Source: a bacterium (GTDB taxonomy: Bacteria; Planctomycetota; UBA1135; GCA-002686595). Taken from it: 35,550 bases of DNA. Location of the stretch: contig JAUIEE010000004.1 of assembly GCA_030428965.1 (NCBI GenBank), forward strand, positions 1 to 35,550. Reading direction: 5' to 3'. The notes under the pieces were generated by a model that saw nothing but the letters and a program-made list of their open reading frames with translations, was not told the DNA's origin and searched no databases. Positions 1,132 to 25,584 of this stretch are shown here, in pieces. Each line of letters opens with the position of its first letter. The first letter of the stretch is position 1. The position numbers and the translations under genes are program-made.

Positions 1132-2095
1132 CCCTGCGTCCCGCGAACAGGGCCCAGGCCAGGAGGAGGAGCCCCGTGCCCACGGCGACCGCGATGCGCA
1201 CGCCGAAGGGGGCGTGGGGACTGACGAAGCCTTCGATCAAGCCAGCCAGGAACAGCATGGGAAAGACCGGGGCCAACACCTCCAGCGCGTGTCGGCTCTC
1301 GAGCTGGAGGGCGTGGGAGCGGGTCCACGGGCCGGGCCGGATCCAGGCGCGGACCATGCACAGCCCGGCGGCCCCCGCGAGCAGGATGGCCTGGATCTCC
1401 AGCACCCCATGGCACCACAGGATCGAGGAGATCGCTCCCGCCTGGCCCCAGTGTCCGGCAACCGCCGTGTAGGTGCCCAGCATGAGCGAGTTGGTCGCCA
1501 GCAAGAGGACGTAGAGCGGCGGGACCAGGGCCGAGGCGAAGAACAGGATCCCCACGCCCATGTTGTGGACCATGATCCAGCCGGCCGTCTCGGGGGACTT
1601 GCCCAGGCCGAAGGTGAAGTTGCCCTGGAACGGTTCTCCGTCCGGCGTCTCCTGGAGCTGGCGAATCTCGGTCTCGACCATCTCCTGGCTCAAGAGGGAA
1701 GGTGCCAGGTCCAGGTCCCGCGATACTCCGAACCAGGCCAGGAGCGCCAGGCCGTAGAGGAGAGCTCCGGTCGTGGCCAGGAGGCGCCACTCGGAGCGCA
1801 GCGCCCTGGGGCTGCGCACGAAGAAGAGCGTGGTGAACCCATGCAGCCAGGACCTGGAGGTCGGCTCGTGTCGGCGGTAGAGGAGAGCGTGGGCGCGGGA
1901 GACGAGCCCCCGTGCCTGGGCCGCCCCGTGGGGATCGGTGCCCCGGGCTTCGAGTCGGGCCGTGATGGAGCAAGCCTGGCGGAAGAGGCGCGGCAACTGG
2001 GCCAGGTCCTCTTCGGAGAGCGAGCGGAGCCCGTGGCGCGCCCTGCCGAGCGCCGCACGCAGACGCCCCAAGCCTTCCTGGTCCGCCTTCTCCAT
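1094..2095 (-). CDS. Stage II sporulation protein M-like (SpoIIM/DUF95) integral membrane protein
   Basis: ORF 1094..2104; multi-TM protein with NFTFGLGKSPETAGWIMVHNMGVGILFFASALVPPLYVLLLATNSLMLGTYTAVA...HGVLEIQAILLAGAAG, typical of the SpoIIM family. Start at 2095 (MEKADQ) preferred because a TAGGAT box overlaps the upstream ATG at 2104. Confidence 0.85.
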   Translation of the reverse strand: MEKADQEGLGRLRAALGRARHGLRSLSEEDLAQLPRLFRQACSITARLEARGTDPHGAAQARGLVSRAHALLYRRHEPTSRSWLHGFTTLFFVRSPRALRSEWRLLATTGALLYGLALLAWFGVSRDLDLAPSLLSQEMVETEIRQLQETPDGEPFQGNFTFGLGKSPETAGWIMVHNMGVGILFFASALVPPLYVLLLATNSLMLGTYTAVAGHWGQAGAISSILWCHGVLEIQAILLAGAAGLCMVRAWIRPGPWTRSHALQLESRHALEVLAPVFPMLFLAGLIEGFVSPHAPFGVRIAVAVGTGLLLLAWALFAGRRASAPDDARTATR

Positions 2096-2190: not shown

Positions 2191-2982
2191 ATGCGCGAGC
2201 TGCACGTCGAGACCACCGAAGGGCTGATCCTGCGCTTCGAGCTGGCGGGGGCCGGATCCCGAACGGCGGCATCGCTCCTCGACTGCCTGCTCCTGTTCAT
2301 CGCCTTCTTCTTCCTCGGCATCTTCCTCGCCCTTCTCAGCTCGATCGACCCCACCGGGCTCTCGGGCTTCGGCGCCGGTCTCCTGGCCGGGGGGCTCCTG
2401 ATCGCTTCCTGTGCCTACCAGATCCTGTTCGGTGTCTTTCGCAACGGCCAGACGCCGGGCAAGAGCCTGTTGGGCCTGCGCGTCGCGGACGCCCAGGGGC
2501 ACTCGGCCTCCTGGGTGCAGCACGCCCTGCGCGGACTCTTCTGGCCCCTCGAGGTGTTGCTCCTGGTTCCGATCTCCCTCGGCATCCTCTTGATCGGAGC
2601 GACGGCCCGTCACCAGCGTCTGGGGGATCTGGTGGCCGGAACCCTGGTCCTGCGCACCCTCCGCAACCCGGAGAAGAGCGAGCCTTTCCCCGATCGTCGC
2701 TGGGAAGGGCTGATGGAGAAACGCCTCGAGCTGTCGCCGGCCCTGGCGACACGTTTCGATGAGCACGAGATCGGCTGGCTGCGGGGCTTCCACTCGCGCT
2801 CGGGAATCGGGAGCGAGGCGCGCGAGCGGATCCTGCTCAAGGCGGGTCCGGTGTTTCTCGAGCGGATCGGGGTGCAGCCTGGCCGGGATCCCCACCAGAT
2901 CGATCTCCTCCTGCGGGAACTCTACGTGTTCCTGCGGGAGTTCGGGCCGTCCTCGGGGGGCGGACGCAGCCTTCCGCGATAG
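2191..2982 (+). CDS. RDD family membrane protein
   Basis: LRFELAGAGSRTAASLLDCLLLF...FRNGQTPGKSLLGLRVADAQGHSASWVQHALRGLFWPLE...RHQRLGDLVAGTLVLR is characteristic of RDD proteins; internal ATG at 2191 preferred to 2155. Confidence 0.88.
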   Translation: MRELHVETTEGLILRFELAGAGSRTAASLLDCLLLFIAFFFLGIFLALLSSIDPTGLSGFGAGLLAGGLLIASCAYQILFGVFRNGQTPGKSLLGLRVADAQGHSASWVQHALRGLFWPLEVLLLVPISLGILLIGATARHQRLGDLVAGTLVLRTLRNPEKSEPFPDRRWEGLMEKRLELSPALATRFDEHEIGWLRGFHSRSGIGSEARERILLKAGPVFLERIGVQPGRDPHQIDLLLRELYVFLREFGPSSGGGRSLPR

Positions 2983-3818
2983 TTCTCCATGGCGCGGATG
3001 TCGTCCTCGTCGAAGCCTCGGCCCGGCTTGCCCATGTCCCACACCCGCGGACGACGCGCGCTGCCCGTCGCCTCGCGCTCCGGTTCGGCGGCAGGCTGGG
3101 AAGCCTCGGCCTGGGCGTAGCGCGAAGGATCGAATCCGGGACCTGGGCCGAAGGGCGTCTGTCCGTGGCGCACGCGAACGCTCATCAGCTCCCAGCCGCC
3201 CGAGATCCAGATGAAGGCGGTGAACACCAGCACCACGCACAGGGACTGGCGCGAGAAGAACATCAGAGAAACGGCCAGGATCGACAGCGAGAGGGCTACC
3301 CAGCGGCCGATGCGGACGGCCTTCTCGGTGGCGCTGACCCAGTCCGTCGAGCGCGCGAACCAGGCGCGCAGGAGACGGCCGCCGTCCATGGGGAACGCGG
3401 GCAACAGGTTCGAGACCCCCAGCAGCAGATTCACGAACACGGCCGCGATCAAGAGCACGCCGAGGGTCGGACCGGCCCAGGGTTTGAGGAGGACCGCCAC
3501 GGTGGCCGCTAGCGCGGCCAGGATCAGGTTGACCACCGGACCTGCGACCGCGACCAGGGCTTCCACTCTCGGGACCTCGGGCATGGCTTGCAGTCGTGCC
3601 ATGCCGCCCAGGGGCCAGAAGGTGATGTCCACCACTCGAATCCCGAAGCGCTTGGCCATGAGCCCGTGTCCCAGCTCGTGCAAGAGCACCGAGCCGAACA
3701 GGATCAGCAGCAGGCCGGGGGACTGCAGACTGCCGGAGAAGAGCAAGAGGAGCAGGCAGCTCCAGTGCAAGCGGATCGGGATGCCGAACGCGCTGCCGAT
3801 CCCGATCGATCCTTTCAC
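2922..3818 (-). CDS. Site-2 protease family (M50) membrane metalloprotease
   Basis: HELGH zinc motif and NLLPAFPMDGGRLLRAW second motif in a multi-TM protein; GTG start. Confidence 0.9.
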   Translation of the reverse strand: MKGSIGIGSAFGIPIRLHWSCLLLLLFSGSLQSPGLLLILFGSVLLHELGHGLMAKRFGIRVVDITFWPLGGMARLQAMPEVPRVEALVAVAGPVVNLILAALAATVAVLLKPWAGPTLGVLLIAAVFVNLLLGVSNLLPAFPMDGGRLLRAWFARSTDWVSATEKAVRIGRWVALSLSILAVSLMFFSRQSLCVVLVFTAFIWISGGWELMSVRVRHGQTPFGPGPGFDPSRYAQAEASQPAAEPEREATGSARRPRVWDMGKPGRGFDEDDIRAMENYRGRLRPPPEDGPNSRRNT

Positions 3819-3850: not shown

Positions 3851-3969
3851 GTGCGCACCGGCGCGAGGGTGGACCCTAGGCCGCCACCCTCGCCACCACA
3901 AGCGGGGAAGTACGGGAAGGCTGGTCCGCTGCCTCTCGGTGCGGCTCGGGCTGTCCTAGAATGGTCTCC

Positions 3970-6090
3970 ATGCAGGCCCATGCCCACGGAAGCTCCCTGC
4001 GGGTGGTTCGTATCGCCCTCGACGACGAGGAGCGCCGCGGGCTGCGAACCCTTCCTTGGGAGTTCGAGTCGGACCCTTGCAGACGAATCGCCGCCTGGGG
4101 GGGGACGGCCCTCGGGCTCTCGGTTCTGCTCGAAGAGGCCGAGCGCGACCCCGGGTCTTCCGGGCCTTTTCTCGTGACCGTGGGACGCTGCGTGGCGCGG
4201 GGAGTTCCCACCGCGGCCCGCGCGAGTTTGCTGGGGCGCTCGCCCCTGTCCGGCCTGCTCTCGGAAGGACAGGTCGGAGGCTCCTTCGCCCTTCACCTGG
4301 CCGCCCACGCGGATGCCCTGTGGATCGAAGGGCGCACGGGCAGACTGGGGGCCGTGCTTTGGATCGACGCCGAAGGCGAGGTGACGCTGCGAAGCCTGCC
4401 CCAGCTGCTCGGTCTCGGGGCCCGGGCCACGGGCGAGAGCCTCGAGCGTGAGCTGGGTGCCTGCGCCTCCCTCGCCATCGGTCCCGCCGGCGAACGGGGA
4501 ATCGCCTTCGCGAACATCGGCACCGGGGAGGCGCAGCCGAGCTTCGTGGGTCGCGGAGGACTGGGGGCCCGGCTCGCAGCCTTCGGTCTCAAGGCCATCG
4601 CGGTGGCACGTCCCGCCGTGCCACCCTCCGGCCGAGGAGCGCGGGACCTGGTGGAACGGCTGGCAGCTTCGCCACGCCTGAAGCAACGCGCCCAGGGGGG
4701 GACCTTCGAGCTCTACCACGCCCACGCGGTACGCTCGGACCTGATGACGCCCGACGGACCTCTCGGCGCGGACGGGGCTCGCAAGCTGGTCCGCGAGAGC
4801 GAGGAGCAGCACGTGGGCCAGAAGGGCTGTCGCGGCTGTCCGACTCCGTGCGGCTGGATCTTCGAGCGCGACGAGGGGGAGCGTCAGGGGGCGCATTTCA
4901 GCGCTTCGTCGGCCCTCGGTACGGACCTCGGGTTCGATCGCTTCGGGCCCGCGCTCGAGCTCCTGGCGGCCTGCGACCGCTACGGACTCGACGCCAAGGA
5001 AAGCGGGGCGGTGTTGGCTCTGGCGGCGGGCGAGGCGGGGGGACCTACCTTCGGGGACGCTGCTTCCTTCCTGGAGGCGCTGCGGGCCATCGTGGAAGGG
5101 GATCCCCATGCGGAGCCCTGGCGCCAGGGTTCGGTGGGCCTGGCCCGCAGCCTCGGTCGTTTGGCCCAGCTGCCCCAAGCTCGCGGGCAGGCCGCGCGCT
5201 CGGGGTCTTCCCTGGCTGCGCTCCTGGGCCAGTGCGTGAGCTCGGCGGGGCCCGACCCGATGCGCAGCTTTCCCTTCCTGCTGGACGCGACCTCTCCGGA
5301 GTCCCTCGAACGCATCCTGGGCACGGCTTTCCCCCCGGGCACGGCCGAGCCCCGCAGTCCGGTGGGCAAGGGCGAGCTCGTCTTCTGGCACGAGAACCTC
5401 GTGACGGCCGTGGACATGACCGGCTTCTGTTCGTTCTCGATGGCCGGCCTGCTGGCGGACGAGGTCGCCGACGTCGACCAGCTGGCTGCCTGGATCCTGC
5501 CCGAGTCCTTGCTCGATCCTGCCGAGCCCGGTTGGAGCGCGACCGGGAAAGGGCGGCGGCTGTTCGCCGCAGGGGCCAACCTGGTTCTCTTGCGCCGGCG
5601 CATCAATCAGCTCTGGGGAGCGCCCGGGGATCAGGATCGGCCCGCCTGGGCCCGGGCCCGGTTGGAGCAACCCGGAATGCTGTCGGACTACCTCGAGCTG
5701 CGCGGCCTCGACGAAGAGGGCTATCCCGAGGCGTCCGCCCTCGATCGGTTGGGAAGCCCCGATCTCCTGCCCCCGGTGCGCAAGGCGCCGCGAGCGGAGG
5801 AGCGAGAGCCGCCGAGCGCTGCGCGCGCCCGCGGCACGGTCCACCTGCGTTCGGTCGGTGCCCTCGAGCGTGCGCTGGGTTCCGAGGCCAGCGTGTCCCT
5901 CGACCTTCCGGCCCCGGTCCTCGACGTGCTCGCGGCCAAAGCAGCGGAGAGTCCGGAGCTCGCGGGTCAACTCGTTCGCGACGGAAGGACGATCCCGTCG
6001 GTCTGGCGGGAGGGAAAGCGCTTGAATCCCGGCGACTGGGTCGAGGACGGCGACGTGCTCGAGCTGGTCGCGGCGATCAGCGGGGGCTAG
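3970..6090 (+). CDS. Aldehyde:ferredoxin oxidoreductase-family protein with C-terminal MoaD/ThiS-like ubiquitin-fold domain ending in GG
   Basis: GRGGLGARLAAFGLKAIAV (AOR N-domain), CRGCPTPC (CxxCxxxC cluster ligands), DMTGFCSFS (fourth Cys region). The tail GTVHLRSVGALERALG...SLDLPAPVLDVLAAKAAESPELAGQLVRDGRTIPSVWREGKRLNPGDWVEDGDVLELVAAISGG* resembles MoaD. ORF caller start is 3961; 3970 preferred. Confidence 0.85.
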   Translation: MQAHAHGSSLRVVRIALDDEERRGLRTLPWEFESDPCRRIAAWGGTALGLSVLLEEAERDPGSSGPFLVTVGRCVARGVPTAARASLLGRSPLSGLLSEGQVGGSFALHLAAHADALWIEGRTGRLGAVLWIDAEGEVTLRSLPQLLGLGARATGESLERELGACASLAIGPAGERGIAFANIGTGEAQPSFVGRGGLGARLAAFGLKAIAVARPAVPPSGRGARDLVERLAASPRLKQRAQGGTFELYHAHAVRSDLMTPDGPLGADGARKLVRESEEQHVGQKGCRGCPTPCGWIFERDEGERQGAHFSASSALGTDLGFDRFGPALELLAACDRYGLDAKESGAVLALAAGEAGGPTFGDAASFLEALRAIVEGDPHAEPWRQGSVGLARSLGRLAQLPQARGQAARSGSSLAALLGQCVSSAGPDPMRSFPFLLDATSPESLERILGTAFPPGTAEPRSPVGKGELVFWHENLVTAVDMTGFCSFSMAGLLADEVADVDQLAAWILPESLLDPAEPGWSATGKGRRLFAAGANLVLLRRRINQLWGAPGDQDRPAWARARLEQPGMLSDYLELRGLDEEGYPEASALDRLGSPDLLPPVRKAPRAEEREPPSAARARGTVHLRSVGALERALGSEASVSLDLPAPVLDVLAAKAAESPELAGQLVRDGRTIPSVWREGKRLNPGDWVEDGDVLELVAAISGG

Positions 6091-6539
6091 CCGAGGGCTT
6101 CCAGGGTCCAGCGCACGGCTTCGGCGGGGCTCGCGGCGACGCGCACCGCCGGATCGATCTCCCAGGAGCCCAGGCTGACCACGGGCTTGGCGCGCTTGAG
6201 GGCGTAGGCGATCTCGGACAGGGTTCCGTGCTCGCCGGCCACCGCGATGAAAGCCCGGGCCGTATTGGCGAGGATGGCGTTGCGCGCGTCGCCCATGCCG
6301 GTCGCGATGGCCAGCTCCACGTAGGGGTTGGCCTGCGCGGGATCCGGGCCCGGGAGGATGCCCACGACGTGACCGCCGGCCTCCCGCGCTCCGCGGGAAG
6401 CGGCCTCCATGACGCCGGTCAGCCCGCCGGTCACGACCGTATGGCCGGCTTCGGCCAGGAGGCGTCCCACCTCCCGGGCCCTGGCGGCCGCGGCTTCGTC
6501 GCAACGGGCCGCTCCGATGACGGCGATGGGGGTCTGCAT
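6087..6539 (-). CDS. TIGR00725/LOG-family (SLOG Rossmann) protein
   Basis: AVIGAARCDE...VVTGGLTGVMEAASRGAREAGGHVVGILPG...GMGDARNAILANTARAFIAVAGEHGTLSEIAYALKRAKPVVSLGSW. Confidence 0.88.
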   Translation of the reverse strand: MQTPIAVIGAARCDEAAAARAREVGRLLAEAGHTVVTGGLTGVMEAASRGAREAGGHVVGILPGPDPAQANPYVELAIATGMGDARNAILANTARAFIAVAGEHGTLSEIAYALKRAKPVVSLGSWEIDPAVRVAASPAEAVRWTLEALG

Positions 6540-6618
6540 GGAAAAAGCTTAGCGCCCGGGGCCGAAGTTCCAGGTGGGCTTTTGGAGCCGGGCCGTTCCG
6601 CCCGATAGCCTCGGGACG

Positions 6619-7674
6619 ATGAAGGTGCTGATCCTCAAGACGGGCGCCCTGGGCGATGTGCTGCGCACGACCTCGATCCTGCCCGGGCTCCACCGGCGCT
6701 ACGCGGGCTGCGAGGTGGTGTGGGTCACGGCCCGGGGAGCGGCCGACCTGGTCCAGCACCACCCTCGCGTCGCCAGGACCGAGCTCCTCGACCTGGGGGA
6801 CCCGGCGTCCTTCGAGGCCCTGGGCGAGAAGCTCGAGCGCGAGAGCTGGGGACGCATCCTGTCCTTCGACGACGAACAGCCCCTGTGCGACCTGGCCACG
6901 CGCCTGGCGGCCGTCTCTCCCGAGGGAGCCCTGTCCGGGGCCTACACCGATCCTGCCGGCCGTCGGGTCTACACCCACGACGTTTCGCCCTGGTTCGACA
7001 TGGGGCTGCTCTCGGTGCACGGCAAGGCCGAGGCCGATCGCCTCAAGGCCGCCAACGTCGAGACTCACCCGGCCATCTTCGCGCGCATGCTCGAGATCGA
7101 CATGGGGGAGCCCGAGCTGCCCCTGCCCGAGAAGGCCCACCGCTTCGCCAGGAACTTCGCGGCGCGCCACGAGCTCCATGCCGTGCGTCCCTTGATCGGA
7201 CTCAACACCGGGGCAGGCGGACGCTGGGACTCGAAGAAGCTGCCCGTCGAGCGGGTGGGCGAGCTGGTGGAGTCCCTCGACCAGGCGCTGGGTGGCAAGG
7301 TCACCTTCCTCCTGCTCGGTGGACCCGAGGAGCGCGAGCGCAACGACCGCATCCTGGCCCAGGCCCGGGGCGGCGCGCGCATCGTCGATGGGGGGACGGA
7401 CAACTCGCTGCTCGACTTCGCGGCCCTGGTCGACTCCCTCGACCTGCTCGTGACCAGCGACAGCCTGGCGCTCCACATGGCCGTGGCCCGCGAGGTGCCG
7501 GTGCTGGCCTTCTTCGCGCCGACCCCCGCCGAGGAGATCGAGCTGTACGGCCGTGGCAGCAAGGTGGCGAGCACGTCGCCGGACTACGCTTCTTACCGCT
7601 CCGACGCGGACACCTCGACCCTGACAACCGAGCGTCTGCTCGAAGCTGCCCTCGGCCTCCTGGCCGAGCGCTAG
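6619..7674 (+). CDS. Glycosyltransferase family 9 (heptosyltransferase-like) protein
   Basis: MKVLILKTGALGDVLRTTSILPGLHRRY N-terminus and ...LDLLVTSDSLALHMAVAREVPVLAFFAPTPAEEIELYGRGSKV C-terminal GT9 pattern. Confidence 0.88.
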   Translation: MKVLILKTGALGDVLRTTSILPGLHRRYAGCEVVWVTARGAADLVQHHPRVARTELLDLGDPASFEALGEKLERESWGRILSFDDEQPLCDLATRLAAVSPEGALSGAYTDPAGRRVYTHDVSPWFDMGLLSVHGKAEADRLKAANVETHPAIFARMLEIDMGEPELPLPEKAHRFARNFAARHELHAVRPLIGLNTGAGGRWDSKKLPVERVGELVESLDQALGGKVTFLLLGGPEERERNDRILAQARGGARIVDGGTDNSLLDFAALVDSLDLLVTSDSLALHMAVAREVPVLAFFAPTPAEEIELYGRGSKVASTSPDYASYRSDADTSTLTTERLLEAALGLLAER

Positions 7675-7983: not shown

Positions 7984-8769
7984 CTAGGGGAGCCGCGTGC
8001 GTCCGCTCCAGCGCTCTTCGTCTTCGCAGGCGATGGCCAGGCCCGGCCCGCTCTCCGGCAGCTGCGCCAGGAGTTCTCCGCTCTGCGACCAGATCGCGCT
8101 GTGCCCGGCCGAGGGGAGGCCTCCGGTGGGGCCGCCGTAGTTGGCGAGGACGACGGCCAGGGAGTGCTGAATGGCATAACCGCGCAGCCGCTCTTCTTCG
8201 GCTCGGAGCTCCCCCGGGGTGAAGAACATGCTGGCCAGGTAGCTCCGCGCTCCCCGTCGCGCGGCCCGGAGCGGATGCTCGGCGTCCCCCGTGTCGGCGC
8301 AGATCGCGATGGACGCGAAGTGTTCGTCGATCCGAACGAGCTCATCGCGCTCTCCGGGGCAAAAGACGGACGGCTCCGGGGGAGGCACGGCTCCGCCCGG
8401 ATTCACTTCCGGGGGGAAGGCGCCCAGGCGCCGTTTCGTGGTCAGGCCCAGGTGTCCATCGGGGCACAGGACGAAGGCGCCGATGTGCAGCTTCTCGCCT
8501 GAGCGGACCGGCGCTCCCACGACCAGGGTCACGCCGCCGGAGGCGGCGCGAGCGCGGAGCGGATCGAGCCGCGCATCGTCTTCGGTGAAGGCCAGGGCCG
8601 GGGCCAGGTCGAGCTCGTAGCCCGTGAGGGAGAGCTCGGGGAACACGAGCAGCTGCACGTCCTCGCCGGCCGCGGCGTCCACCAGGTCCAGGTGGCGGCG
8701 GGTGTTGGTCGCGACGTCTCCCCGCACGGGGACCGTCTGGGCTGCCGCGAGGGAACGCGAGGAGCTCAT
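7984..8769 (-). CDS. Carbon-nitrogen hydrolase (nitrilase superfamily)
   Basis: Candidate Glu-Lys-Cys triad contexts: VFPELSLTGYE, LTTKRRLG, IAICADTGD. Confidence 0.88.
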   Translation of the reverse strand: MSSSRSLAAAQTVPVRGDVATNTRRHLDLVDAAAGEDVQLLVFPELSLTGYELDLAPALAFTEDDARLDPLRARAASGGVTLVVGAPVRSGEKLHIGAFVLCPDGHLGLTTKRRLGAFPPEVNPGGAVPPPEPSVFCPGERDELVRIDEHFASIAICADTGDAEHPLRAARRGARSYLASMFFTPGELRAEEERLRGYAIQHSLAVVLANYGGPTGGLPSAGHSAIWSQSGELLAQLPESGPGLAIACEDEERWSGRTRLP

Positions 8770-21019: not shown

Positions 21020-22105
21020 ATGGCTGAACGAAACCGGTCCTTCGCGCGTCGGCCCGAGGCCGTGCTCGCCCGCAAGGGGGGCAAGGTCGAGCTCCTGCGC
21101 TTGCCCGCCCTCCTCTTCGGCTGGGTCGCCGGCGTGCGAGGAAGTCTCTACGACCGGGGCTGGCTGTGGAGCGGACGGCTGGACGTGCCGGTCGTTTCCG
21201 TGGGCAACCTGAGCGCCGGGGGTACCGGCAAGACTCCGATGGTCCTGTGGCTCGTGACCGAGCTCGAAAGGCGCGGCCTGCGGACGGGCATCCTGTCGCG
21301 GGGCTACAAGTCCCGCGGCGCCGAGGCCAACGACGAGGGAGCGATGATCGCCGAGCTGGCCGGTGACGTGCCCCACGTGCAGGACAAGGACCGGGTGCGA
21401 GGTGGACGCGAGCTCGTGCGCCAGGGCGTGGAGGTCATCGTGCTCGACGATGGTTTCCAGCACAGGCGGCTGCGCCGGGACCTGGATCTGGTCTTGATCG
21501 ATGCCACTCGGCCCTGGGGGCTTCCGTCCCCCGACGATGGGAGCTCGCCCGTAAGGGCCCTGATTCCCCGCGGCCTCTTGCGGGAAGCGCCCGAGCGCCT
21601 CTCCCGGGCCCACGCCATGATCCTGACCCGCACCGACCAGCTGGGGGAACAGGCGCTCGAAGCGTTGCGCGAGGAGCTTCGCTACCTGGCTCCGGGCATC
21701 CCCATCCTGGAGGCGGAGCACCGGCCGAGCCTGCTGATCGACGCCCAGGGAGAGCGGCGCATGCCGAGCGCCCTGCGCGGGGCAACGGTCGACCTGGTGA
21801 GCGGCATCGGCAATCCGGAGGCCTTCGAGAGTACGGTGCGCGGGCTGGGAGCCACGGTGCGCTCCCATCGCACGTTTCCCGATCACCACGACTTTCGGGC
21901 CGAGGACTTGGCCGGGCTCGGGAGCTTCCTCACCACCTCCAAGGACGCTCCCAAGCTGCGGGCGCTGGGCATCGACTGCGACGTGCTCGAGGTGCGCTTT
22001 CAGTTCGTGCGGGGAGCGGGAGTCCTGGAGGCCTTGCTGGACGCGCTGCCCCCGGGCAAGGCGCGTCGAGAACGCAGGAACCTGCACGAAGGACTCCATG
22101 GTTGA
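21020..22105 (+). CDS. lpxK: Tetraacyldisaccharide 4'-kinase
   Basis: VVSVGNLSAGGTGKTPMVLWLVTEL, GILSRGYKS, VIVLDDGFQHRRLRRDLDLVLIDATRPWG, FPDHHDF motifs. Confidence 0.95.
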   Translation: MAERNRSFARRPEAVLARKGGKVELLRLPALLFGWVAGVRGSLYDRGWLWSGRLDVPVVSVGNLSAGGTGKTPMVLWLVTELERRGLRTGILSRGYKSRGAEANDEGAMIAELAGDVPHVQDKDRVRGGRELVRQGVEVIVLDDGFQHRRLRRDLDLVLIDATRPWGLPSPDDGSSPVRALIPRGLLREAPERLSRAHAMILTRTDQLGEQALEALREELRYLAPGIPILEAEHRPSLLIDAQGERRMPSALRGATVDLVSGIGNPEAFESTVRGLGATVRSHRTFPDHHDFRAEDLAGLGSFLTTSKDAPKLRALGIDCDVLEVRFQFVRGAGVLEALLDALPPGKARRERRNLHEGLHG

Positions 22106-23150
22106 GACGGTTGAACCCTTGGAGCGTGAAGGGAAGGCGCCCGGCGGCGAACCGTGGCCGGTGCCCTGGCAGCCGGTCCTGGGCAAGGACAACGGGATCG
22201 CCAGCCACCTGCACTACTTCCTTCTGCGCGCTGTCCTGTTCGTCGGAGCCCGCATGCCCCATGGGGTCATGGACGCCTTCGGTTCCGCCCTGGCCCGGGT
22301 GGCCTACCGCCTGCTGCCGTCGCGGCGGAAGGTCGCCGTGGAGTTCCTCGAACAGGCGCTCGGTCCGCTCTCGAAAGAGGAGCGCAGCCGCCGCGTGCGC
22401 CAGGCCTGGCTGCACCTGTTCCGCGTCGTGATCGAGGCCGAACGCTTCTACCGCCGCGTGCCCCTGGACCGGGCCCGGGAGCACTTCGACGTCCACTTCA
22501 CCCCGGACGCCCGACGCGCCCTGGCCACCGAGGGCGGCTGCGTCCTGATCACGGGGCACCTCGGGAACTGGGAGTCCCTCAACGTCCTGGCCGTGGCTCT
22601 CGGGCTGCGCTCGGTCTACGTCGTGGGCAAGCCCCCGAAGAACCGTCCCCTGTCCAAGGCCGTACAGGATCGCCGCGAGCACTACCGCTCGCGCCTCCTG
22701 CCGCGCCGCGGCGCCATGCTCGCCGCCCCCACGATCATCAAGTCCGGCGGAACCCTGGGCCTGGTCGTGGATCAGCGTGCGCGTCTCAAGCCGGTCTACG
22801 CTCCGTTCTTCGGGCGCCGGGCGCGCTGCGACCGCTCCGTGGGCGTTCTGCTGCGGCGCTTCAAGGTGCCCGTCATCCCCATGGCCGCCTACCTGACCGA
22901 CCAGCCGCTGCGCTACCGGGTCGAGTTCGGGGACATCCTGTGGCCCGAGGATCTGGCCGGCAAGGACCCCGTGGATATCGCCGTCCTGATCAACCAGACT
23001 CTCGAGAAGATGATCCTGGCCGATCCCGACCAGTACTTCTGGCTCCACGACCGCTATCGGGGCGGCGAGGATCCCGAGGAGGGAGCCCGCGAAACTGCGG
23101 TCTCGGCTAAGGGAGAGGCGGCCCCAGGTTCGAAGGAAGAAACGCCATGA
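22098..23150 (+). CDS. Lysophospholipid/Kdo2-lipid A acyltransferase family protein (LpxL/HtrB-like)
   Basis: LITGHLGNWESLNVLAVALGL...GGTLGLVVDQRA; overlaps lpxK stop; AAGGA upstream. Confidence 0.88.
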   Translation: MVETVEPLEREGKAPGGEPWPVPWQPVLGKDNGIASHLHYFLLRAVLFVGARMPHGVMDAFGSALARVAYRLLPSRRKVAVEFLEQALGPLSKEERSRRVRQAWLHLFRVVIEAERFYRRVPLDRAREHFDVHFTPDARRALATEGGCVLITGHLGNWESLNVLAVALGLRSVYVVGKPPKNRPLSKAVQDRREHYRSRLLPRRGAMLAAPTIIKSGGTLGLVVDQRARLKPVYAPFFGRRARCDRSVGVLLRRFKVPVIPMAAYLTDQPLRYRVEFGDILWPEDLAGKDPVDIAVLINQTLEKMILADPDQYFWLHDRYRGGEDPEEGARETAVSAKGEAAPGSKEETP

Positions 23151-24100
23151 TCGTCGTAACCGGTGGTGCCGGCTTCATTGGGAGCAACCTGGTCCGTGGG
23201 CTCAACCGCCGCGGCGAGGACGACATTCTGGTCGTCGACGACCTGCAGAACGGAGAGAAGCACCTCGGGCTGAACAGCCTGCGCTTCGCGGACTTCGTCG
23301 ACTACCGCGACTACATCGAGGATCCCGCGCGCTTCGCCCCGGAGCCCCGCGCTGTCCTGCACCAGGGAGCGTGCTCGGACACCATGGAGGCGGACGGCCG
23401 CTACATGATGCGCGTGAACTACGAGTACTCGAAGACGCTGCTCGAGTTCTGCCAGGGCCGCTGCCCGTTCCTGTACGCCTCGTCCGCCTCGGTCTACGGC
23501 GACGGCAGCCGGGGCTTCCGCGAAGAGCCGGCCTGCGAGTACCCGCTCAACGTCTACGCCTTCTCGAAGTTCCTGTTCGACCGCTACGTGCGCACGCGTC
23601 TCGCGGGAAGCTCGACGCCGATCGTCGGACTGCGCTACTTCAACGTCTACGGTCCCCAGGAGAACCACAAGGGGCGCATGGCCTCGGTGGTCTTCAAGTT
23701 CCACGGGCAGATCGAGGGCGGAGAGGGCCTGCAGGTCTTCTCCGGCAGCGGAGACTTCCTGCGCGACTTCGTCCACGTCGACGACGCCGTGCGCATGAAC
23801 CTCTTCTTCCTTGACCACCCCGAGGTGAGCGGCATCTTCAACTGCGGCACCGGCGTGGCGGAGAGCTTCCTGGACCTGGCGCGCCACGTCGCGGCCCAGT
23901 ACGAGGGCGCCGAGATCGTCGAGATCCCCTTTCCCGATTCTCTGCGAGGCAAGTACCAGGCCTTCACCCAGGCCGACCTGACCCAGCTGCGCCAGGCCGG
24001 GTACGAAGAAGCGTTCACGAGCCTCGCCGACGGCGTGGCCCGGTACGTCCGGGTGTTGAAGGACAGCCACGGCTACTACAAGACGCCGGTGACCCCATGA
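23147..24100 (+). CDS. hldD: ADP-L-glycero-D-manno-heptose 6-epimerase
   Basis: MIVVTGGAGFIGSNLVRGLNRRGEDDILVVDDLQNGEKHLGL; LRYFNVYGPQENHKGRMASVVFKF; ATGA overlaps upstream gene. Confidence 0.93.
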   Translation: MIVVTGGAGFIGSNLVRGLNRRGEDDILVVDDLQNGEKHLGLNSLRFADFVDYRDYIEDPARFAPEPRAVLHQGACSDTMEADGRYMMRVNYEYSKTLLEFCQGRCPFLYASSASVYGDGSRGFREEPACEYPLNVYAFSKFLFDRYVRTRLAGSSTPIVGLRYFNVYGPQENHKGRMASVVFKFHGQIEGGEGLQVFSGSGDFLRDFVHVDDAVRMNLFFLDHPEVSGIFNCGTGVAESFLDLARHVAAQYEGAEIVEIPFPDSLRGKYQAFTQADLTQLRQAGYEEAFTSLADGVARYVRVLKDSHGYYKTPVTP

Positions 24101-25584
24101 GAGACCGCGAACTGCTGGCGCAGATCGATGGGCTGGGCCATCCTCGCATCCTGATCGTCGGAGACCTGATCCTCGATCGCTACGTGGCGGGGGACGTCGC
24201 GCGCATCTCGCCCGAGGCGCCCATTCCCGTTCTGGCCGCGCGCCACATCGAGGAGCGGCTGGGGGGCGCGGGGAACGTCGCCGCCAACCTGCGGGCGATG
24301 GAGGCCGAGGTGAGTCTCCTGGGCGTCGTCGGCAAGGACGCCCTCGGGGACCGGCTGCAAGGCCTCCTGGAAGGGATCGGGGTCGATGCCTCCGGACTCC
24401 TGCGCGACGAGCAGCGCCCGACGACGGGCAAGACGCGTTTCACGAGCGGGGGACAGCAGATCCTGCGGGTCGACTGGGAGGACGCCCAGCCGGTGACCCC
24501 CGAGCTGATGGGCGGTCTGGTCGACCACGCCCATTCGGTCATGGGGGAGATGGGGGCGGTGATCCTCTCGGACTACGGCAAGGGCGTGCTGGGCGAGCCC
24601 GTGCTGCAGGGCGTCATCGCCGCGGCCCGCGCGCACGGGGTTCCGGTGCTGGTCGATCCCAAGGGCACCGACTACGGCCGCTACCTCGGGGCGACCCTGG
24701 TCACGCCCAACCGCAAGGAAGCGGAAGAGGCCTTGGGACGCAAGCTGCGGCCCTTCGAGGAGCTGCCCCGGGGAGCGGACGAGTTGATCGAGACGGCCGA
24801 GCTCGACGCGGCCGTCATCACCCTGGGTGCCGACGGCATCTACTACCGCTCCAAGGGCGGAACGCTGGGGGAGAAGACCGGTCGCATCGCGCCCGTGGCC
24901 CGGGCCGTGTTCGACGTGACCGGCGCCGGCGACACGGTCATCTCCCACCTGGCCCTGGCCCTGGCCGCCGGCCTGGGCCTGGAGTCCGCCGTGCGCCTCG
25001 CCAACCAGGCGGCGGGCATCGTGGTCGGTCGCCGCGGAGCCGCGTCCGTGACCAGACGTGAGCTCAAGGCGGCCTTCGGTTCCCGGTCCGGAGGGGCCAG
25101 CCTGATCCTGGAGCGCTCGGAGCTGCCCGAGTTGCTCTCCGAGTGGCGCGCCGAGGGCAAGCGCATCGTCTTCACGAACGGCTGCTTCGACATCGTCCAC
25201 GCGGGGCACATCGACTACCTGCGCACGGCGCGCTCCCGCGGGGATGCCCTGATCGTGGCCCTCAACGACGACGAGAGCGTCCACCGACTGAAGGGGGAAG
25301 GTCGTCCGATCAACAAGATCGCCGACCGCATGCGTGTGCTGGCCGCCCTCGAGATGGTGGATGCGGTGGTGGCCTTCAGCGAGGACACGCCCCTTGCGAT
25401 CGTCGAGGAGATCACCCCCGACGTGCTCGTGAAGGGACAGGACTGGGAAGACAAGGGCGTCGTCGGACGGGAGTGGGTCGAGCAGCACGGGGGCGAGGTC
25501 TACCTGGCACCGCTCCTGCCGGGACGCTCGACCACCGCCATCGCCAATCGCCTGCGGGACGGCGAGGCTTCGAGCACGTCCTAG
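24097..25584 (+). CDS. hldE: Bifunctional heptose-7-phosphate kinase / heptose-1-phosphate adenylyltransferase
   Basis: N-terminal PfkB-like RILIVGDLILDRYVAGDVARISPEAPIPVL...VTGAGDTVISHLALALA; C-terminal VFTNGCFDIVHAGHIDYLRTARSRGDALIVALNDDESV. Confidence 0.95.
   Translation: MRDRELLAQIDGLGHPRILIVGDLILDRYVAGDVARISPEAPIPVLAARHIEERLGGAGNVAANLRAMEAEVSLLGVVGKDALGDRLQGLLEGIGVDASGLLRDEQRPTTGKTRFTSGGQQILRVDWEDAQPVTPELMGGLVDHAHSVMGEMGAVILSDYGKGVLGEPVLQGVIAAARAHGVPVLVDPKGTDYGRYLGATLVTPNRKEAEEALGRKLRPFEELPRGADELIETAELDAAVITLGADGIYYRSKGGTLGEKTGRIAPVARAVFDVTGAGDTVISHLALALAAGLGLESAVRLANQAAGIVVGRRGAASVTRRELKAAFGSRSGGASLILERSELPELLSEWRAEGKRIVFTNGCFDIVHAGHIDYLRTARSRGDALIVALNDDESVHRLKGEGRPINKIADRMRVLAALEMVDAVVAFSEDTPLAIVEEITPDVLVKGQDWEDKGVVGREWVEQHGGEVYLAPLLPGRSTTAIANRLRDGEASSTS

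What the first reader, a model, noticed from the sequence alone, without database searches (positions are those of the whole stretch)
3970..6090. AOR-family oxidoreductase fused to its own MoaD-like Gly-Gly tail
The protein has the AOR-type CxxCxxxC cluster motif and then a C-terminal stretch of about 85 aa that reads like MoaD/ThiS, ending exactly at ...AAISGG-stop. MoaD needs a free C-terminal Gly-Gly for adenylation and thiocarboxylation during pterin-cofactor synthesis. A covalently attached tail suggests an AOR that carries its own sulfur carrier for cofactor assembly, or uses the tail as a ubiquitin-like conjugation or docking element. No other cofactor-synthesis gene is visible here. 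I cannot tell whether the fusion is already catalogued.
Basis: partly seen in the sequence, partly recalled or inferred. Interest (0 to 1): 0.75.

Follow-up and report, generated by a model that had tools for sequence, protein, structure and literature searches.

The report
Tungsten oxidoreductase with fused sulfur-carrier tail
In one family of Planctomycetota, nearly every genome carries a single tungsten/molybdenum oxidoreductase permanently joined to a ubiquitin-like sulfur-carrier domain whose two end glycines never vary, while the residues other such enzymes use to oxidise aldehydes are all replaced, which makes the unknown job of that carrier directly testable.

Summary
One ORF (3961-6090, 709 aa) joins a complete AOR-type tungstopterin oxidoreductase (Pfam AFOR_N + AFOR_C) to a C-terminal beta-grasp domain of the ThiS/MoaD/SAMP1 kind, ending exactly at Gly-Gly. 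The tail is too divergent for a single-sequence Pfam call (E 0.04), but 24 of 30 orthologous tails match ThiS, the predicted fold matches SAMP1 and MoaD, and the terminal GG is invariant: 62 of 63 complete relatives end in GG; the exception has the domain as a separate overlapping ORF. The fusion has one origin (100/100 support) and is in nearly every genome of one Planctomycetota family, usually as the only AOR. Elsewhere in the phylum a free GG-ending domain often sits near the AOR gene ("WorX"), so this is best read as a WorL-WorX fusion. New here: all 66 fused proteins keep the cluster cysteines and pterin-site aspartates, but none keeps Glu313, Tyr427 or His448, typical of aldehyde-oxidising members. 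The genome also has ThiS, a MoaD-MoaE fusion, MoaA and other molybdopterin enzymes, so the tail is not its only sulfur carrier. The architecture was noted once before (Azoarcus, 2006). Best mechanism: E1-activated sulfur carrier acting in cis for cofactor assembly; not proven.

The parts
3961..6090 (+). Whole gene, 709 aa: AOR/WOR large subunit fused to a C-terminal ThiS/MoaD-like domain (alternative start at 3970)
4093..4608 (+). AFOR_N domain (residues 45-216), tungstopterin-binding N-terminal module
4645..5754 (+). AFOR_C domains 2 and 3 (residues 229-598)
4828..4851 (+). C290-x2-C293-x3-C297, three of four [4Fe-4S] ligands; invariant in 28/28, 66/66 in the larger set
5428..5430 (+). C490, fourth cluster ligand (PfAOR Cys494), in the motif D485xxGFC
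4900..4902 (+). S314, at the position of PfAOR Glu313 (Ser/Gly/Asn/Ala in all 66 fused proteins)
5257..5259 (+). P433, at the position of PfAOR His448 (Pro in 63, Ser in 3 of 66 fused proteins)
5755..5817 (+). Variable linker between AOR body and tail (residues 599-619)
5818..6087 (+). ThiS/MoaD/SAMP1-like beta-grasp domain (residues 620-709)
6082..6087 (+). Terminal Gly708-Gly709, directly followed by the stop codon; invariant in orthologs

Best explanation
This is a tungsten- (or molybdenum-) pterin oxidoreductase large subunit (WorL) fused to its WorX, the ThiS/MoaD-like sulfur carrier often encoded next to such enzymes. Shown computationally: the fusion, the beta-grasp fold, an invariant free Gly-Gly, retained cluster ligands and pterin-site aspartates, a single evolutionary origin, and unfused counterparts near other AOR genes. 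Inferred: an E1 enzyme (MoeB/ThiF type, present in most relatives) adenylates Gly709, a thiocarboxylate forms, and the tethered tail supplies sulfur, probably with MoaE acting in trans, for the dithiolene of the cofactor that this same polypeptide will hold. Also inferred: the replaced active-site residues mean the mature enzyme does something other than ordinary aldehyde oxidation.
For: Domain calls and structure. GG invariant in 30/30 tails aligned and in 62/63 complete ORFs although tail identity to the window is only 31-50%, which points to chemistry at the C-terminus. Fused clade monophyletic, 100/100 (68). In the sister lineage G039 the same domain is a separate ORF with a GTG overlapping the AOR stop. 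Other planctomycete AORs have a GG-ending Ubl adjacent or nearby on the same strand. Literature: WorX predicted to act in pterin biosynthesis (PMC13328260); a Ubl, TK2118, is needed for growth that depends on a tungsten enzyme in Thermococcus, and a deltaGG version was used in the complementation test (PMC11323500). E1 genes in 34 of 37 family genomes, MoaE in 36 of 37.
Against: The genome has other sulfur carriers (ThiS, MoaD-MoaE fusion, SAMP1-like) and several other molybdopterin enzymes, so a private carrier is not obviously needed. The tail profile matches TtuB, SAMP1 and ThiS at least as well as MoaD. No E1 was found in the incomplete window genome. One carrier covalently tied to one enzyme would have to be recharged to make two pterins, or act in trans. 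No conserved cofactor gene lies beside the gene; the conserved neighbours are an M50 protease and a GT9 glycosyltransferase. The metal was not determined.
Confidence: 0.52

Rival explanations
1. The tail is a tethered swinging arm for the enzyme's own catalysis: the GG thiocarboxylate or acyl-adenylate is the substrate or product of the oxidoreductase domain, so the enzyme works in a sulfur relay rather than on free aldehydes.
For: All 66 fused proteins have lost Glu313, Tyr427 and His448 while keeping cofactor ligands; Pro replaces His448 only in the fused clade, its nearest unfused sister keeps His (69). Precedent for a redox enzyme with such a tail: ThiS-type domain fused to sulfite reductase in some actinobacteria (Iyer 2006).
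Against: Unfused relatives (L160, L162, L163) had already lost Glu313 and Tyr427 (69), so the active-site change is not strictly tied to the fusion. No sulfur-metabolism neighbour. Tail placement relative to the active site could not be examined.
Confidence: 0.18
2. The tail is a ubiquitin-like modifier or docking element: it recruits E1, MoaE or a metal insertase, or is conjugated to other proteins, without donating sulfur.
For: Closest folds include SAMP1, which conjugates to proteins; JAB-type proteases occur in most family genomes.
Against: Pure docking would not require an invariant terminal GG with no residue after it. A 70-kDa modifier would be unusual. JAB genes are not beside this gene (51).
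Confidence: 0.15
3. The tail is a structural or vestigial remnant of a fusion with no present chemistry.
For: Tail sequence is variable (31-50% identity to the window) and the window copy is below Pfam threshold.
Against: Terminal GG invariant; purifying selection on the tail similar to the body in most pairs; retained across some 30 genera.
Confidence: 0.08
4. Artefact of assembly or mis-joined ORFs.
For: The window is from a draft genome of 84.5% completeness in 643 contigs.
Against: Same fusion in dozens of independent assemblies, including the complete chromosomes Pla86, Pla163 and Poly30.
Confidence: 0.01

Closest known systems
WorL + WorX of tungsten-containing oxidoreductases (Putumbaka et al. 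2026, PMC13328260)
   Same: AOR-type large subunit with a ThiS-like protein, predicted there to serve pterin biosynthesis
   Different: WorX is described as a separate nearby gene; searches of that paper's main text found no fusion with it and no mention of Planctomycetota. Glu313, Tyr427 and His448, conserved in most aldehyde-oxidising members, are absent here
AOR-MoaD fusion reported for Azoarcus (Iyer, Burroughs and Aravind 2006, PMC1779556)
   Same: MoaD fused carboxyl-terminally to AOR: the same architecture
   Different: A single case, worded 'might be fused' in the text; no phylogeny, GG survey or active-site analysis in the passages read. Sequence not available to me, so relatedness is untested. 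In Aromatoleum aromaticum EbN1 the MoaD-like aorD and aorE are separate genes (PMC6365974)
Pyrococcus furiosus AOR (1AOR)
   Same: Fold (Foldseek E 3.2e-28), four cluster cysteines, Asp338/Asp343 region, Thr243, Asp489
   Different: About 20% identity; Glu313, Tyr427 and His448 replaced; extra C-terminal domain
SAMP1, MoaD, TtuB, ThiS sulfur carriers
   Same: Beta-grasp fold and terminal Gly-Gly
   Different: Free small proteins; here the domain is tethered to an oxidoreductase of about 610 residues and the window copy lies below their curated score cut-offs
ThiS-type domain fused to sulfite reductase (actinobacteria; Iyer 2006)
   Same: Redox enzyme with a C-terminal Ubl sulfur carrier
   Different: Different enzyme family; siroheme/sulfite chemistry (my general knowledge)
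MoaD-MoaE fusions (in this same genome, L156)
   Same: A sulfur carrier fused to a functional partner
   Different: There MoaD is N-terminal and its GG is internal, so it would have to be freed; in the AOR fusion the GG is already free

Membership tests
AOR / WOR (AFOR) family large subunit | AFOR_N and AFOR_C domains above curated cut-off | tested here: met
   (99 and 90.7 bits against 29.8 and 27)
AOR / WOR (AFOR) family large subunit | Four cysteine ligands of the [4Fe-4S] cluster | tested here: met
   (66/66)
AOR / WOR (AFOR) family large subunit | Binds a tungsto-bispyranopterin | not testable with these tools
   D343 and D489 equivalents are invariant, consistent with pterin binding; metal unknown
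Canonical aldehyde-oxidising AOR | Thr243, Glu313, Tyr427, His448 (PfAOR numbering; listed in PMC13328260) | tested here: not met
   Only Thr243 kept; Glu313, Tyr427 and His448 absent in 66/66 fused proteins
ThiS/MoaD ubiquitin-like sulfur carrier | Beta-grasp fold | tested here: met
ThiS/MoaD ubiquitin-like sulfur carrier | C-terminal Gly-Gly immediately before the stop | tested here: met
ThiS/MoaD ubiquitin-like sulfur carrier | Pfam ThiS above gathering score | tested here: inconclusive
   Window tail 14.9 bits against 22.5, so not met for this sequence; AOR tails of orthologs in G004, G034 and G032 are over the cut-off
ThiS/MoaD ubiquitin-like sulfur carrier | Adenylation and thiocarboxylation by an E1 | not testable with these tools
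   E1 genes present in most relatives; chemistry needs experiment
MoaD in the strict sense (MPT synthase small subunit) | Best match to MoaD rather than ThiS/SAMP/TtuB | tested here: inconclusive
   TtuB, SAMP1, ThiS and MoaD all match weakly
WorX | ThiS-like protein encoded with a WOR large subunit | tested here: met
   fused rather than adjacent
WorX | Role in pterin biosynthesis | not testable with these tools
   Only a prediction in the literature as well

The most novel reading that the evidence does not exclude
A clade of tungsten-type oxidoreductases has given up aldehyde chemistry and works on, or through, the thiocarboxylate or adenylate of its own ubiquitin-like C-terminus, i.e. a redox enzyme with a tethered protein substrate arm.
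Probability: 0.14. Interest if true: 0.85.

Novelty: new variant of a known kind. Interest (0 to 1): 0.55.

Why it matters
The role of WorX-type sulfur carriers beside tungsten enzymes is still only a prediction. A natural, lineage-wide covalent version ties carrier and enzyme together, so mutating two glycines would test whether the carrier serves its own enzyme's cofactor. Three named planctomycete strains with complete genomes (Pla86, Pla163, Poly30) carry it. The clade also marks an unexplored active-site type in the family: nearly universal and usually single-copy in one bacterial family, with the residues typical of aldehyde-oxidising members missing, which suggests an unknown reaction.

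Tried and rejected
Single-sequence scan of genome contigs found nothing; an alignment query was needed. Plasmid tblastn: no match. Rfam on the window: no riboswitch or other RNA, so no Moco/Tuco motif upstream. Idea that the tail is the genome's only sulfur carrier: rejected, ThiS, MoaD-MoaE and a third Ubl are present. Idea that the domain is a misread of an adjacent gene: rejected, same fusion in many assemblies. Idea that the split copy in G039 proves an unfused ancestor: held back, because a run of eight G lies just before the junction and an indel error there could split a fused gene in the assembly. Operon link to cofactor genes: not found; conserved neighbours are an M50 protease (46 loci) and a GT9 glycosyltransferase (48 loci), and in the window a gene on the other strand separates AOR from GT9. 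Looking for fusions in other phyla from the Desulfobacterales relative failed because no genome handle was available. Tungstate-specific transporter: ModA-type binding proteins are found in 25 of 31 family genomes, but this model does not separate W from Mo, and PF12849 is too general.

Full report
OBSERVATION. The window holds one uninterrupted ORF at 3961-6090 (+), 709 aa. Pfam places AFOR_N at residues 45-216 and AFOR_C at 229-598, both far above cut-off; phmmer against PDB gives P. furiosus AOR (1AOR) at 7e-25. The remaining 90 residues end ...LELVAAISGG-stop. On this sequence alone the ThiS match is below threshold, and the SAMP1 model scores E 5.8e-4. The own genome has a single copy.

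ORTHOLOGS. 36 of 61 genomes searched (own genome and 60 relatives) match, nearly all in the same family, at 34-49% identity to the window for the aligned full-length copies. An alignment search of genome contigs gave 78 loci; the close ones are Planctomycetota where named, with the complete genomes Pla86, Pla163 and Poly30 among them. Of 63 loci L031-L097 with a closed AOR reading frame, 62 end in Gly-Gly. In tails aligned from 30 sequences only the two glycines are invariant. Pairwise dN/dS lies well below 1 for the body in all pairs and for the tail in all but one (L049/L052, near 0.8), so in general both parts are under purifying selection.

FOLD. AlphaFold2 on the 28-row alignment: mean pLDDT 90, pTM 0.92. 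The tail modelled alone: pLDDT 95. Foldseek: AORs at 1e-28 to 1e-22 for the whole chain, and in the same search HVO_2177, SAMP1 and mycobacterial MoaD for the tail; tail alone: HVO_2177 3.5e-6, SAMP1 3.6e-5, MoaD-type 3.9e-5 and 2.1e-4. The profile of tails matches TtuB (9e-5), a ThiS/MoaD protein, SAMP1, MoaD-related and ThiS chains in PDB. It is therefore a genuine Ubl sulfur-carrier-type domain, but which subfamily (ThiS, MoaD, SAMP/TtuB) is not resolved.

EVOLUTION. A maximum-likelihood tree of 65 AOR sequences puts all 26 sampled fused proteins on one side of a branch with 100/100 support; G039 (another family of the same order) is their nearest unfused neighbour. In G039 the Ubl is a separate ORF whose possible GTG start overlaps the AOR stop; a run of eight G nearby means an assembly frameshift cannot be excluded. 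In about 13 other planctomycete AOR loci a GG-ending Ubl of this type is encoded on the same strand close to the AOR gene, upstream or downstream, in some cases directly abutting it. This corresponds to what Putumbaka et al. (PMC13328260) call WorX. In the family, AFOR_N is detected in 32 of 37 genomes (in most others only AOR C-terminal fragments at contig ends were found), with two genomes having a second, different AOR; of the 24 other genomes of the order only G039 has one.

ACTIVE SITE. Aligned to PfAOR (sequence taken), the fused clade keeps the four cluster cysteines, Asp343 and Asp489 in 66/66 rows and Thr243 in most (56 Thr, 6 Ser). It has no Glu313 (Ser/Gly/Asn/Ala), no Tyr427 and no His448 (Pro 63, Ser 3); residue 311 is Arg or His instead of Glu. 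Among 49 rows not ending in GG, 41 keep Glu313, 39 Tyr427 and 44 His448 (two of these 'plain' rows are truncated fused genes, and a few rows on either side are duplicate contigs fetched twice). PMC13328260 names Thr243, Glu313, Tyr427 and His448 as conserved especially in most aldehyde-oxidising members. The loss was stepwise: L160, L162, L163 and G039 lack Glu313 and Tyr427 but keep His448. So the protein should not be filed as an aldehyde oxidoreductase, although it belongs to the AOR/WOR family.

COFACTOR SUPPLY. The genome has MoaA, a 241-aa MoaD-MoaE fusion whose MoaD part ends in an internal ...PPVSGG, a ThiS-like gene followed by a ThiG-like ORF (ThiG recognised by eye, not by HMM), a third SAMP1-like Ubl, a ModA-type binding protein and six PF00384 molybdopterin-enzyme matches. 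In the family, MoaE is in 36/37 and a ThiF/MoeB-type E1 in 34/37, though not in the window's own incomplete genome. Thus pterin synthesis exists independently of the AOR tail. In most family genomes MoaD shares one frame with MoaE, so the AOR tail is one of the Ubls with a GG that is free without processing.

NEIGHBOURHOOD. Across the loci compared the recurrent neighbours are a divergent M50 protease (46 loci) and a GT9 glycosyltransferase downstream (48 loci). In the window these are 2922-3818 (-) and 6574-7674 (+), with a TIGR00725-family gene (6087-6539, -) between AOR and GT9, its end overlapping the AOR stop codon tail to tail. No cofactor gene was recognised in the window among the ORFs scanned.

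MECHANISM. Invariant free GG in an otherwise variable domain argues for chemistry at the C-terminus. By analogy with MoaD, WorX and the Thermococcus Ubl TK2118 (PMC11323500), I judge E1 activation and sulfur delivery for the enzyme's own pterin the most likely role (0.52). The altered active site leaves room for a tethered-substrate role (0.18; the most novel form 0.14).

NOVELTY. Iyer et al. 2006 reported MoaD fused C-terminally to AOR in Azoarcus, so the architecture is not new. A lineage-wide, single-origin fused clade with invariant GG and a replaced active site was not found in the papers I could search; that library is partial.

Noticed in passing
L156 (G000:C335), 1162-1887 (-); family-wide: MoaD is fused to the N-terminus of MoaE in most genomes of this family, with the MoaD Gly-Gly internal (PPVSGG-ATDSDG), so it would need cleavage to be charged.
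   Followed up: partly
window 2922-3818 (-) and 6574-7674 (+): M50 protease and GT9 heptosyltransferase-like gene flank the AOR gene in most of the family; the reason for this deep synteny is unknown.
   Followed up: partly
L033:5516-6829 and equivalents in about 17-25 loci: Patatin-like phospholipase carrying 4Fe-4S ferredoxin motifs encoded upstream of the AOR gene in many relatives.
   Followed up: no
L036:13742-14848 and equivalents in 11-18 loci: Radical SAM gene about 4 kb downstream of the AOR gene in many relatives.
   Followed up: no
window 21020-25584 (+): LpxK, lipid A acyltransferase, epimerase and PfkB-cytidylyltransferase (HldE-like) genes in a row: a lipid A / heptose cluster in a planctomycete.
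   Followed up: no
G000:C74:3746-5014 (-): Molybdopterin oxidoreductase with one in-frame TGA, as in most family members, suggesting a selenocysteine formate dehydrogenase.
   Followed up: no
L159 (G039:C78), reverse-strand positions 8230-8290: AOR and Ubl ORFs overlap by GTGA just after a run of eight G; either true stop-start coupling or an assembly frameshift.
   Followed up: partly
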